A stretch of DNA of 64,000 nt from Candidatus Nitrosotalea okcheonensis (lineage in GTDB: Archaea > Thermoproteota > Nitrososphaeria > Nitrososphaerales > Nitrosopumilaceae). The position numbers and the translations under genes were made by a program. Location: NCBI RefSeq assembly GCF_900177045.1, contig NZ_LT841358.1:637073-701072 (forward strand). Direction: 5' to 3'. How positions within the stretch are numbered: position 1 is the stretch's first letter; each line of letters starts with the position of its first letter. The notes below the pieces were generated by a model that saw nothing but the letters and a program-made list of their open reading frames with translations, searched no databases and was not told the DNA's origin. Positions 31,687 through 36,146 of this stretch are shown here, one piece after another.

Positions 31687-31801
31687 ATTTTTGATCAAAA
31701 AATTAGTTTTTTATGAAAAAAATTGTGTCTAATTACTCATCATTTAGTGTAACTTTCTTAAGTGCTACAATAGAAAAACTAGTAAATTCAACAATTGTGC
31801 A

Positions 31802-31960
31802 ATGGCAAAACGATCAACACGAGCTGTTAAAAAAAGATCAGCTGCAAAGAGAAGATCAGCTGCAAAGCGATCCGCTCCAAAGAGAAGATCTGCTCCTAAG
31901 CGAAGTGCTCCAAAGAGAAGATCAGCTGCAAAGCGAACAGCTTCAAAAAGACGAAGATAA
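31802..31960 (+). CDS. 52-residue highly basic repeat protein
   Basis: The product starts MAKRSTRAVKKRSAAKRR and repeats units like KRRSAxKRSAPKRRSA. It has 10 Lys and 15 Arg in 52 residues and no acidic residue; Ala, Ser and Pro make up most of the rest. Such composition resembles histone H1 tails, bacterial HC1/AlgP-type DNA-binding tails and some ribosome- or nucleoid-binding peptides. It should bind nucleic acid without a fold of its own; that is inference. The other frames here give repetitive Gln/Glu/Leu strings that are shadows. A perfect hairpin follows 8 bases after the stop. Confidence 0.65.
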   Translation: MAKRSTRAVKKRSAAKRRSAAKRSAPKRRSAPKRSAPKRRSAAKRTASKRRR

Positions 31961-31968
31961 AATTTTAA

Positions 31969-32001
31969 ACAGATTATCGCTTCCAGTAAGCGATAATCTG
32001 T
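31969..32001. terminator. Perfect 14-bp hairpin between convergent genes
   Basis: ACAGATTATCGCTT (31969-31982) and AAGCGATAATCTGT (31988-32001) are exact reverse complements with a 5-base loop. It lies 8 bases after the basic-protein stop and 6 bases before the stop of the convergent gene. Likely a bidirectional terminator or mRNA 3'-end stabiliser; a protein-binding inverted repeat is also possible. Confidence 0.6.
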
Positions 32002-32007
32002 AATATT

Positions 32008-32292
32008 TTAGCTAAACATTTGGCCTGGTGGGGATGACGATTTGTTTTTTACTGCATCAGGCTCTACGAAAAATTTTCTTTCATTAGGAATTATAGATAA
32101 CTTCAGCGATGCATTTACAGCATAATGTGGTGTGCCATCAGGATTTTTGTAGTTTGCTGCAATCCCAACTCTATCAAGATCAACTTTTACCTTTACAATG
32201 GTTCCATCTTCAAGCTTGAAAGTAACGTGGTCCTCTCCCACTCGTTGATGATCTAGCATCTTGAATTCTATTTTTTCTTTTGATATACTCAT
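32008..32292 (-). CDS. Hypothetical 94-residue protein
   Basis: Begins MSISKEKIEFKMLDHQRVGE at 32292. The middle is beta-rich (HVTFKLEDGTIVKVKVDLDR), and the C-terminus is flexible (KNKSSSPPGQMFS). An upstream ATG adds five codons, but a TATA-like CAAATAAC about 26 bases before 32292 favours the shorter form. I do not recognise the family. Convergent with the basic repeat protein. Confidence 0.65.
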   Translation of the reverse strand: MSISKEKIEFKMLDHQRVGEDHVTFKLEDGTIVKVKVDLDRVGIAANYKNPDGTPHYAVNASLKLSIIPNERKFFVEPDAVKNKSSSPPGQMFS

Positions 32293-32382
32293 ATCATTTG
32301 AAAACAAATTGAGTTATTTGAGGGTTGCACATCTTATTCGAATTTTTCTTTCTGACGATATGTTGTTTTTTCTTTTTCCTCT

Positions 32383-32964
32383 TCAGGTGTAATGTTCATC
32401 TTTGAGAAGACCCTTTTCTATTCCTAATATTTTAGAAATTTCTTCATAAAAATAGTCAAACTCTTGCTTTTTTCTACCCTCAAGCAAACCAAACTAATTT
32501 GTAATCCAATCAAGATAGCCCCGGCCTTCCGGTATCCAGGATCTGTTATCTATACAATGTGCAACATATCCAAGACATGAAAGGAATTCCTCCCTTGTGA
32601 TTGGGCCTTCCTTGAGGCCTTGAATGGCAGCTTGTTTGAGTGTTATTGTGAGACCATCTTTTATCTTCGTCTGTCTTGAATTCTTGTTAGTAACATTGTC
32701 AATTTTTATTTTTTTCCACATGTCATTACCGGCATCATTTTGTTCATCGCGGTATCTGCTTCCAAACGACATGATTTCTTTTAACAACATCTCATCTGTA
32801 ATGTTAGGATTTTCCACATGGTATGATGCTATTGCAAATTCGATCGGGTATAGAATATGTGAATAATTTTCTACATCAAATCTGCCCAGTATTTTTTGCT
32901 TCTTTTCATTCTTAATTCCTTGTTTCCTGTTGCTTGTTGCCTTAGATCCAGAACGAACAGACGC
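32383..32964 (-). pseudogene. Decayed gene of unknown family
   Basis: One frame is open from 32964 to 32497, with coding-like sequence (KQKILGRFDVENYSHIL, then EMLLKEIMSFGSRYRDEQND and REEFLSCLGYVAHCIDNRSW). It then meets a TAG at 32494 and continues in the same frame with FGLLEGRKKQEFDYFYEEIS to a TGA at 32383. There is no ATG or TTG before the GTG at 32817. Upstream, another frame reads NITDNHDEQIERLFVLD, also gene-like. Nonsense and frameshift damage to an older gene is the simplest reading. A surviving 107-residue product from the GTG at 32817 is the alternative. Confidence 0.45.
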
Positions 32965-32982
32965 TCAATCTGTTCATCATGG

Positions 32983-33189
32983 TTATCGGTGATATTGTTT
33001 TTCTTGTTTTTTACCACGTCTCAACAGTTTATTTCGCTCTCCGATTGCCACATTTGTATTACTTGCACGTAATGAATAATGAATCTTTTGTTCATTGTGA
33101 TCAACCGAAAATAATTTAATGAAAAAAACAAGGATCAGTACAGGAAACAGCGACCAAGTGGCATCATGAGAATGCTTGTTAATTATCAT
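32983..33189 (-). CDS. Possible small single-span membrane protein
   Basis: A 68-residue frame starting MIINKHSHDATWSLFPVLIL with a hydrophobic helix (LFPVLILVFFIKLF), then a polar, basic C-terminus ending KKQEKQYHR. It lies 39 bases after the collagen-like gene on the same strand. It may be real, or a fragment of the decayed gene downstream. Support is limited to composition and the clean membrane segment. Confidence 0.35.
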   Translation of the reverse strand: MIINKHSHDATWSLFPVLILVFFIKLFSVDHNEQKIHYSLRASNTNVAIGERNKLLRRGKKQEKQYHR

Positions 33190-33228
33190 TTTTTTGTAAA
33201 CGATTATGCCATCTGAGTTATTTACATA

Positions 33229-34857
33229 TCAGTAAAGAAAGCTCATTAATTTTATTTGCTGTTCTGTCGTCAACACATTTTTCGAAGACAAAATCTCAAG
33301 CAGTTGAGTTATCAAAGCACGTTCTTGCTCTGAGAATCCGGTTGGACCCTTGTCACCTGGAGGTCCTGGAGGACCTCGTGGACCCTGTTCGCCAGGAATT
33401 CCCTGTTGTCCTTGCGTACCTTGTGGACCCTTGTCACCTTGTGGGCCTTGTTGACCTGTCAGTCCCTTGTCACCTTGTGGACCCTGTACACCCTGAGTAC
33501 CCTTGTCACCTGGAGGTCCCTGTGGACCTTGCGGACCAGGAGGACCCGGAACTCCTTGAATTCCAGGCGGACCCTTGTCACCTGGAACACCCTGCGGACC
33601 AGTTGTACCTTTTTCACCTTGTGGACCCTGTATTCCTTGAGGACCTGGAGGACCAGAGGGACCAGACGTACCACGGGGGCCTTGATCACCAGTAGCACCA
33701 GGTAACCCCCTTGGTCCCTTGTCGCCTTGTGGACCGGGGATTCCCGTAAGGCCTTTTTCCCCCGCAGGACCTTGTGGCCCTTGCGGACCTTTTTCCCCAG
33801 GCGGACCCTGTGGACCGGTTAGTCCCTTGTCACCTTGTGGACCTTGTGGACCGGACAATCCCTTGTCGCCAGGTATACCTACTGGACCTTTTGGACCCTG
33901 TTCTCCAGGCGGACCAATAATTCCTTTATCACCGGTAGAACCTGGCGGACCAGTAGGGCCTTTTTCTCCAACCGGACCAATCTCTCCTGTGAGTCCCTTG
34001 TCGCCCTTGTCTCCCTTGTCGCCCTTGTCTCCACGCTCTCCTTTTTCTCCCTCATCACCACGTGGACCCTTGTCACCTTGTGGACCCTTGTCACCAGTAA
34101 TTCCTTTATCACCAATTGGACCCTTGTCTCCCCTGTCACCCTTGTCGCCAGGCATACCCTGAGGTCCTTTATCACCATGTGGACCGGGCGGCCCAGGAGG
34201 ACCCTTGTCACCAGTAATTCCTTTATCACCAATTGGACCCTTGTCTCCCCTGTCACCCTTGTCGCCAGGCGGTCCAGGCGGACCCTTGTCACCTTTTTCT
34301 CCAGCAGGACCTTGTGGACCCTTGTCACCCTGTATGCCCATTGGACCCGGAGGACCGGATACACCGGGTTGGCCCATCGGGCCGGGTTGACCCATAGGAC
34401 CTGCAGGACCCATAGGACCAGAGGGACCACGGTAACCTCTTTCGCTTGTAAAATGTTCCATGGTTTGTTTTGGTCTTGTATCAGAATCCGATTTTGTATA
34501 TCTAGTCGCCTCTGGTTCCGTGGCTGGTTCAACATAGCCAGAACTTATTCGCGGAACATCAACTGGAAAACTAGTATAAGATGATGAGAACTGGTCTATT
34601 ACAACAACCCAGACTAGTCCTCTCTGAAACACAGATGATGGTAGTGGGTTTTTTATAGAGCCCAAAACCTGAGAAAATTTTTTGTCTTTAACCCTAAGAT
34701 GAAAGTTATCTTTCCACAAAGCATGAAAGCTTCGTCTCTTGACATCATCGGCAGATGGGGAAGCATCGCAGAGTGCAATTTGTACCTCAAAGACACCAGA
34801 CGGGATCTTAAAAGGAGATTCACCTGAGACCTCGATAGTATTATCTTTTGATGACAT
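33229..34857 (-). CDS. Collagen-like Gly-X-Y repeat protein
   Basis: A 542-residue protein. Residues 1 to about 140 form a non-repetitive N-terminal domain ([37 protein letters not shown]). From G141 to about 507 there are roughly 120 consecutive Gly-X-Y triplets, rich in GDKG, GPPG and GPQG, i.e. charged Lys-Asp collagen without hydroxyproline. The last 35 residues ([19 protein letters not shown]) are helical and may act as a trimerising coil. There is no signal peptide or membrane segment, so the protein may be cytosolic or exported by an unknown route. Bacterial collagen-like proteins form stable triple helices; this is expected here. The gene has internal repeats, including a 72-bp duplication. 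Confidence 0.9.
34082..34153. repeat. 72-bp exact direct repeat, copy A (inside collagen-like gene)
   Basis: Identical to 34199-34270, offset by 117 bases (39 codons, 13 Gly-X-Y triplets). The unit length keeps both the frame and the triplet register, so the tract can lengthen or shorten by recombination without breaking the protein. Confidence 0.9.
34199..34270. repeat. 72-bp exact direct repeat, copy B
   Basis: Second copy of the duplication in the collagen-like gene. The flanking bases on both sides differ from copy A, so the exact match ends at these coordinates. Confidence 0.9.
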
Positions 34858-34980
34858 ATTCTACGTCTAATTCCTAAGTATTTTTGTATTTTCAATATGA
34901 TATAAAGCCCATTTGTGAATTTTTAGACACATTTGGAAACTGTTTTCTACCTTTCGTTACTGCCTAATTTTCAAACTAAT

Positions 34981-34990
34981 CTATTTATCT
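34981..34990 (+). promoter_or_regulatory. TATA box of the TPR gene
   Basis: CTATTTATCT lies about 25 bases upstream of the TTG at 35010, consistent with a leaderless mRNA beginning at or near that codon. The interval also contains the promoter of the divergent collagen-like gene. Confidence 0.45.
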
Positions 34991-35009
34991 ACGGCTAATC
35001 CACATTTTA

Positions 35010-36146
35010 TTGACCGTGAAGAAACTATTTGGAGATAAAAAAGAAGAGCCTGCAACTAAGATAACAAAGTCAGAGGAACCTACCAATACCAAACTGACAG
35101 ATTCCAACTATAACAGAAACAAACTCTACAAAAAGGGAATTTCCCTCATGGCAGACGAGAGAATGGATGATGCTGCGGTGGCTTTTGAGGGCGCCTTACG
35201 AATCGATCCAACACACATTGAATCTCTTCTGAAACTAGGATACACCCGTTTTCACATGAATGACATGTCAAGTGCCATGGAGGCTTATAACAAAGTCCAT
35301 GAGATTGACGTGACAAATGCCGAGGCGTGGAACTTGAAAGGCTTGATTTACTATAGGCAGAAAAATTATGATAAAGCATTAGACAGTGTAGAAAAGGCAA
35401 TTGATTCCAATTCCATGGATGGAATGTCATGGTACAACAAGGCATGTTATCATTCTTTGTTGAATCACATACCAGAGGCAATTGAGGCACTAAAGCGTGC
35501 AATTGAGATAGATGTAAAAAATGCAAGAAAAGCAGTAAAGGACAAAGATTTTGAGAACATCAGGGCAGATGACGGATATAGAAGAATTGTTGAAGTTGTC
35601 GTGCTGGAATCCGTAAGACAGGGATATCACAAAGTCGGACAGATTGTCTGGACCACAATGATTGGTAAGCTGGAAGTAGAAGACGCTGCAAGAAAACTAA
35701 TTGAAAAGGGATTACTTACCAAGACAGAGAAAAGTCTCGGACTTCAAAAAGTGGAAGAATATGAAATTGTTCCAGAACTTGCTGAAAAGATTGGTGTTGA
35801 GAGAAAAACTTTCTTTGGAACTACAAAAAAATCCCAACCAATTGTCATACAAAACCTCAAGGAGATAAACGAGGCTGTTCATGCTGCCAAGACATCAATT
35901 GAGAAAGGAGACATCAGTGAAATCATTTCGAAACTTGATGTGTTCATAGAACCGTCAAAGAAGGGCAGTCAGATGATCGAATATTTTTTCGAGGAGCACA
36001 GAGACATCAGGCTGTACAAGGTAAGACTCACTGACAAGGGCACCGAATATCTCCAAGTAAACAAGCAAAAAATAATTGATTTGTTTGATAATATAGAAAC
36101 CATGATAACCAAGAAACTTCGTGCAGAATCTGCCGGACAGTCCTGA
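35010..36146 (+). CDS. TPR-repeat protein with C-terminal winged-helix-like region
   Basis: A 378-residue soluble protein. After a charged lead, residues about 35-170 hold at least three tetratricopeptide repeats (ADERMDDAAVAFEGALRIDP, AWNLKGLIYYRQKNYDKALD, ALKRAIEIDV). The second half has a helical segment similar to a winged helix (ARKLIEKGLLTKTEKSLGLQ) and a long helix near the end. TPR domains mount protein-protein contacts. No partner is shown. TTG start; a GTG two codons later is possible. Confidence 0.8.
   Translation: MTVKKLFGDKKEEPATKITKSEEPTNTKLTDSNYNRNKLYKKGISLMADERMDDAAVAFEGALRIDPTHIESLLKLGYTRFHMNDMSSAMEAYNKVHEIDVTNAEAWNLKGLIYYRQKNYDKALDSVEKAIDSNSMDGMSWYNKACYHSLLNHIPEAIEALKRAIEIDVKNARKAVKDKDFENIRADDGYRRIVEVVVLESVRQGYHKVGQIVWTTMIGKLEVEDAARKLIEKGLLTKTEKSLGLQKVEEYEIVPELAEKIGVERKTFFGTTKKSQPIVIQNLKEINEAVHAAKTSIEKGDISEIISKLDVFIEPSKKGSQMIEYFFEEHRDIRLYKVRLTDKGTEYLQVNKQKIIDLFDNIETMITKKLRAESAGQS

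What the first reader, a model, noticed from the sequence alone, without database searches (positions are those of the whole stretch)
33229..34857. Long archaeal collagen-like protein without a signal peptide
About 120 uninterrupted Gly-X-Y triplets, dominated by Lys-Asp-Gly-Pro units, sit between a 140-residue N-terminal domain and a short helical C-terminus. Collagen repeats are uncommon in archaea. Lys/Asp pairs can stabilise triple helices without hydroxyproline. With no signal peptide, the protein is either cytosolic, which would be unusual for collagen, or uses an unknown export route.
Basis: partly seen in the sequence, partly recalled or inferred. Interest (0 to 1): 0.65.

Follow-up and report, generated by a model that had tools for sequence, protein, structure and literature searches.

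The report
Conserved, signal-less archaeal collagen-like rod
Almost every member of the ammonia-oxidising archaeal family Nitrosopumilaceae carries one copy of a collagen-like protein of nearly fixed length and no secretion signal, paired head-to-head with the gene of a partner that also lacks one, so it looks like a collagen rod working inside the cell rather than the usual surface fibre.

Summary
In detail: 33229-34857(-) encodes 542 aa with 140 N-terminal residues, 123 uninterrupted Gly-X-Y triplets and a 33-residue helical C-terminus; an in-frame TAG two codons before the ATG excludes an upstream signal peptide. One detail is wrong: the unit is Gly-Asp-Lys-Gly-Pro (KDG never occurs). The genome is Nitrosotalea-like. 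The gene is a single-copy core gene of Nitrosopumilaceae (43 of 44 genomes in a phylum-wide sample, 0 of the other 256). None of 51 homologues checked has a signal peptide, while all 11 other collagen-repeat proteins sampled from relatives start with a hydrophobic segment. Triplet number is nearly fixed (117-125 in 40 of 70, 98-104 in 19); X/Y positions are under strong purifying selection (dN/dS 0.02-0.08). The head is predicted to be a beta-sandwich without a close structural match. In nearly all genomes the gene is divergent from a TPR/winged-helix protein gene. Best explanation: an intracellular homotrimeric rod about 105 nm long holding its two ends apart. Trimerisation, localisation and TPR binding are inferred, not shown. 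The nearest NCBI model (LPXTG-anchored SclB adhesin) does not fit. Non-canonical export is the main rival.

The parts
34546..34857 (-). N-terminal head domain, residues 1-104, beta-rich (Ig/FnIII-like sandwich predicted)
   Evidence: AF2 model pLDDT above 90 over residues 11-100, strands 8-13, 21-30, 48-57, 60-65, 81-88, 94-100; conserved family-wide; no Pfam family for this protein
34438..34545 (-). Variable, probably disordered linker, residues 105-140
   Evidence: pLDDT about 50-60; sequence not conserved, length 31-52 aa in the clades compared
33331..34437 (-). Collagen-like rod: 123 uninterrupted Gly-X-Y triplets, residues 141-509
   Evidence: conserved length and X/Y residues
33232..33330 (-). 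C-terminal helical cap, residues 510-542 ([33 protein letters not shown])
   Evidence: most conserved segment, up to the last Tyr; occurs only once in this genome; helical nature is from sequence, not modelled
34858..35009 (.). Divergent intergenic region with conserved AT-rich promoter-like elements in both directions
   Evidence: alignment of 19 loci: AAATACAAAAATACT towards the collagen gene, TATTTATCTACGG towards the TPR gene; both also recognisable in marine loci
35010..36146 (+). Divergent neighbour gene: TPR domain, then winged-helix-like domain, then helical C-terminal domain; no signal peptide seen
   Evidence: Pfam TPR; AF2 model mean pLDDT 80; head-to-head in nearly all loci; family-wide presence
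32008..32307 (-). Small 94-99 aa gene, often 12-47 bp downstream of the collagen gene; conserved neighbour, not a dedicated partner
   Evidence: absent from most g11 (Nitrosopumilus-type) genomes and present in other Thermoproteota

Best explanation
An intracellular, homotrimeric, near-fixed-length collagen rod. Three identical chains would form a triple helix of 123 triplets (about 105 nm at 0.286 nm per residue) with a beta-sandwich head at each N-terminus and a helical cap at the C-terminus. It would act as a rigid strut or tether that keeps whatever binds its two ends a set distance apart. The divergently transcribed TPR/winged-helix protein is the most likely partner, perhaps docking on the conserved C-terminus. 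Shown here: the sequence architecture, absence of signal peptide and membrane segments, single-copy family-wide conservation, length constancy, purifying selection, conserved divergent pairing. Inferred: trimerisation, stability without hydroxyproline, intracellular location, binding to the TPR protein, and the spacer role.
For: No signal peptide in 51 of 51 homologues examined, even when every upstream in-frame start is allowed; 0 of 73 have LPXTG near the C-terminus or RR in the first 40 residues. By contrast, all 11 collagen-repeat loci from relatives that are not this gene begin with a hydrophobic segment (12-residue hydropathy 2.0 or more). Triplet number 117-125 in 40 of 70 complete genes and 98-104 in 19; exactly 101 in nine of nine clade-B genes and 123-124 in twelve of twelve clade-A genes. 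dN/dS of X/Y positions 0.02-0.08, as low as the head; X/Y residues position-specific (majority-triplet frequency 0.64-0.82 against 0.21-0.29 shuffled). Divergent TPR gene next to it in nearly all loci with conserved intergenic elements; the TPR C-terminal part is found in all 30 sampled family genomes. C-terminal cap near invariant. No PF13640 hydroxylase found, and seven K-G-D/E steps.
Against: No experiment on location, assembly or binding. A published N. maritimus protein, NmPin, is reported at the outer membrane face (PMC4922055), so unusual export may exist in this family. Length is not universal: 84-90, 140, 163 and 185 triplets also occur. Head-to-head pairing suggests co-regulation but does not prove interaction, and conserved synteny can be inherited passively. 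The TPR gene also exists in a sister family without the collagen gene, so it has another role too.
Confidence: 0.5

Rival explanations
1. It is exported by a non-canonical route and forms fibres between membrane and S-layer or on the cell surface, like other prokaryotic collagen-like proteins.
For: Most characterised prokaryotic collagen-like proteins are surface-exposed (own knowledge). NmPin of N. maritimus is reported on the outer membrane face (PMC4922055). In a related Nitrosotenuis strain, genes labelled LPXTG-anchored collagen-like adhesins are highly expressed at low salinity and one was detected in the proteome (PMC13037477), though it is not known which gene that is.
Against: Other collagen-repeat proteins in the same lineage use ordinary hydrophobic N-termini. 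Paired with a TPR/winged-helix gene without signal peptide. No Tat motif, no membrane segment, few N-glycosylation sequons. Near-fixed length is unlike typical repeat-variable surface adhesins (own knowledge).
Confidence: 0.25
2. The repeat does not form a triple helix: it is a charged, flexible linker between head and C-terminal cap.
For: No trimerisation evidence; no PF13640 hydroxylase found; only 19% Pro in Y.
Against: Not one Gly lost in 117-125 triplets across dozens of genomes with high synonymous divergence, and position-specific X/Y conservation. The real linker before the rod varies in sequence and, between genera, in length.
Confidence: 0.1
3. A domesticated phage or virus tail-fibre gene.
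For: Best PHROGs matches are tail fibres and many viral contigs encode collagen repeats.
Against: All matches lie in the repeat; head and cap profiles find nothing significant in 80 viral loci, the head finds nothing in viral contigs, PHROGs or phage records. Neighbours are housekeeping genes. Near universal in the family.
Confidence: 0.05
4. An LPXTG-anchored SclB-type adhesin, as the nearest NCBIfam model suggests.
For: NCBIfam NF038329 matches at 1.2e-72.
Against: Score 245 is below the curated cut-off of 325; no signal peptide, no LPXTG.
Confidence: 0.02

Closest known systems
Streptococcal-type collagen-like adhesins (SclA/SclB; NCBIfam NF038329/NF038330)
   Same: Long uninterrupted Gly-X-Y rod rich in charged residues, non-collagenous N-terminal domain
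   Different: No signal peptide, no LPXTG anchor, different N-terminal domain, conserved helical C-terminus, near-fixed length; below the curated score
Exosporium collagen BclA of Bacillus (own knowledge)
   Same: Precedent for a collagen-like protein made without a classical signal peptide
   Different: BclA has a C-terminal jelly-roll trimer domain and a spore context; here the cap is a short helical segment and there are no spores
Phage tail-fibre collagen repeats (PHROGs, e.g. phrog_5073)
   Same: Gly-X-Y repeats in cytoplasmically made proteins
   Different: Head and cap not found in the viruses searched; chromosomal core gene
Collagen-repeat proteins with hydrophobic N-termini in Nitrososphaeria (e.g. 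L145, L147, L160)
   Same: Gly-X-Y repeats in the same archaeal class
   Different: They carry N-terminal hydrophobic segments, mostly shorter repeats and other domains; unrelated ends

Membership tests
Collagen triple-helix repeat proteins (PF01391) | Long uninterrupted Gly-X-Y repeat above Pfam gathering score | tested here: met
   206 bits against 27.2; 123 triplets
Collagen triple-helix repeat proteins (PF01391) | Actually forms a triple helix | not testable with these tools
   needs CD, melting or structure
LPXTG-anchored SclB adhesin (NF038329) | Score at or above curated cut-off of 325 bits | tested here: not met
   245.3 bits
LPXTG-anchored SclB adhesin (NF038329) | N-terminal signal peptide | tested here: not met
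   stop codon two codons upstream of ATG
LPXTG-anchored SclB adhesin (NF038329) | C-terminal LPXTG sorting signal | tested here: not met
   0 of 73 homologues
Phage tail fibre | Head or C-terminal domain shared with viral fibres | tested here: inconclusive
   none found in PHROGs, phage records or viral contigs; absence does not exclude
Phage tail fibre | Phage gene neighbourhood | tested here: not met
   tRNA synthetase, methyltransferase, GTPase, sulfite reductase, rhodanese neighbours
Ig/FnIII-like beta-sandwich (head domain) | Clear structural match to a solved structure | tested here: inconclusive
   best Z 7.0 over 88 residues, rmsd 3.3; several unrelated proteins tied; no Foldseek match at E 0.001 in PDB

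The most novel reading that the evidence does not exclude
A collagen triple helix works as an intracellular cytoskeletal or scaffold element: a near-fixed-length ruler or strut of about 87-105 nm, roughly half the 0.17-0.22 um diameter reported for N. maritimus (PMC4922055), that organises cell architecture in Nitrosopumilaceae together with a TPR/winged-helix adaptor.
Probability: 0.25. Interest if true: 0.9.

Novelty: new variant of a known kind. Interest (0 to 1): 0.66.

Why it matters
Collagen is generally regarded as an extracellular material. A core, single-copy, signal-less collagen-like protein in the Nitrosopumilaceae, which include the cultured Nitrosopumilus maritimus, would be a strong candidate for an intracellular collagen. 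It also offers a hydroxyproline-free repeat of near-fixed length for protein design, and a candidate structural element in small rod-shaped archaea. In the held literature no study of this gene was found; the nearest mention is a label of surface adhesin.

Tried and rejected
Upstream start with signal peptide: rejected, in-frame stop. SHOCT-like C-terminus (a resemblance from memory): not among Pfam matches for any of 26 members at E up to 5. Relation of the head to a remembered bacterial fibre-domain consensus: no useful match in plasmids or phages, unresolved. Head against PDB sequences: none at E up to 10. Foldseek and VIA-align on the head: only generic beta-sandwiches. The 94-aa downstream gene as a dedicated partner: rejected by its different phylogenetic distribution. 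The TPR neighbour model: structural matches cover the TPR part only; the winged-helix and C-terminal parts were barely tested by that search. Apparent short rod in L047 and broken frames in L048 and L049: L047 and L049 contain unresolved bases and the frames of L048/L049 are split, so not interpreted. Viral loci found with the full-length profile share only the repeat. Papers: no study of this gene found.

Full report
Observation. The ORF at 33229-34857 on the minus strand is real: 542 aa from ATG, Pfam Collagen at 3.9e-62, 140 residues before and 33 after 123 uninterrupted Gly-X-Y triplets. The strand reads TAG-AAT-ATG just upstream, so a longer start with a signal peptide is impossible.

Where it lives. 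The window lies in a genome of 1.97 Mb in one contig whose nearest relatives are Nitrosotalea. A search with the N-terminal domain found it in 54 of 101 genomes, all in the same family; among the 60 family members other than the window's genome 53 have it, and the misses are mostly incomplete genomes. In a phylum-wide sample, 43 of 44 family genomes have exactly one copy and none of the other 256 genomes does. A scan of about 85,000 species returned 57 relatives, all titled as thaumarchaeal or Nitrosopumilales records or, in two cases, only as archaeon; that scan rests on one peptide pattern and can miss divergent members. One locus (L172) comes from a single contig of 1,645,259 bases, which I recognise as the size of the N. 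maritimus SCM1 chromosome (own knowledge).

Anatomy. Every complete homologue has the same order: head, variable linker, uninterrupted rod, helical cap. The head aligns at 50% mean column identity and is predicted with high confidence as a beta-rich domain; the best structural matches are generic beta-sandwiches with Z up to 7.0 and no clear homologue. The cap ends in the near-invariant TxEQIKLxSxLY and is unique in this genome.

Selection and length. Between close relatives, X and Y residues have dN/dS of 0.02-0.08 in the pairs where dS could be measured, as low as the head; the cap is close to zero in most pairs. Right-aligned triplets are position-specific, 0.64-0.82 majority frequency against 0.21-0.29 after shuffling within proteins. 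Triplet number is 117-125 in 40 of 70 complete genes and 98-104 in 19. Clade A of Nitrosotalea has 123-124 in twelve of twelve; clade B has 101 in nine of nine. DNA repeats change length easily, so this constancy suggests selection on length; it is not absolute, as 84-90, 140, 163 and 185 also occur. Within clades A and B the linker length varies by only a few residues as well, so the contrast between linker and rod is clearest in sequence.

Location. No homologue has a signal peptide under any in-frame upstream start, and none has LPXTG near the C-terminus or RR in the first 40 residues. The highest 19-residue hydropathy in the set is 1.65, in a reading that I attribute to untranslated upstream sequence; the median maximum is 1.17. 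As a control, all 11 other collagen-repeat proteins sampled from related archaea start with a hydrophobic segment. N-glycosylation sequons are few. This favours a cytoplasmic protein but is not proof: NmPin is reported at the outer membrane face in N. maritimus (PMC4922055).

Neighbourhood. The gene is divergent from a TPR-protein gene in nearly all loci where the region is available, with conserved AT-rich elements pointing both ways in the intergenic region. The TPR protein is predicted to have a TPR domain, a winged-helix-like domain and a helical C-terminus. Its C-terminal half is in all 30 sampled family genomes, one genome of another family of the order, and weakly one more. In that other genome the TPR gene has no collagen gene beside it, though a HAD phosphatase lies nearby as in the window, so the collagen gene probably arose next to an older TPR gene. 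The downstream 94-aa gene is a frequent neighbour but its distribution does not match. Other neighbours are housekeeping genes.

Mechanism. Steps shown: architecture, conservation, selection, missing export signals, divergent pairing. Steps inferred: trimer formation, stabilisation by Lys/Asp and Pro in place of hydroxyproline (no PF13640 gene found in the genome), cytoplasmic location, binding of the TPR protein, and use as a strut about 105 nm long. N. maritimus is 0.17-0.22 um wide (PMC4922055), so the rod would span about half the cell; that comparison is suggestive only.

Literature. No paper in the held library studies this gene. One 2026 paper on a Nitrosotenuis strain reports LPXTG-anchored collagen-like adhesins highly expressed at low salinity, one seen in the proteome (PMC13037477). 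That label matches the NCBIfam SclB model which our protein hits below cut-off. Whether it is this gene is unknown, because genomes of genus g17, which I take to be Nitrosotenuis, also carry other collagen-repeat proteins.

Verdict. The protein is a real, conserved, near-fixed-length collagen-like core protein of one archaeal family; an intracellular role is the best-supported reading at about even odds, and it should not be filed as a surface adhesin on present evidence.

Noticed in passing
window 32310-33215: About 890 bp insertion between the collagen gene and the 94-aa gene, flanked by a 10-bp direct repeat (TGAGTTATTT) and absent from close relatives L063-L065; single copy in the genome; contains a 107-aa ORF at 32494-32817(-).
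   Followed up: partly
window 31713-32003 (+): 96-aa ORF with 33-bp tandem repeats (QLQREDQLQS type); related sequence found in several Nitrosotalea loci and in the N. maritimus-sized genome L172.
   Followed up: no
L048 (G042) and L049 (G050): Collagen frame split across reading frames with the C-terminal cap still present; could be assembly errors or gene decay.
   Followed up: partly
L141 (G365 C1 about 1250779-1255803): A 2518-aa open frame with very long collagen repeats and a hydrophobic N-terminus in a family member: a separate, apparently secreted collagen-like protein.
   Followed up: no
L146, L148, L160, L161: Short collagen repeats right after an N-terminal hydrophobic segment in proteins that also carry CxxCH motifs (multihaem cytochrome-like), in another family of the order.
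   Followed up: no
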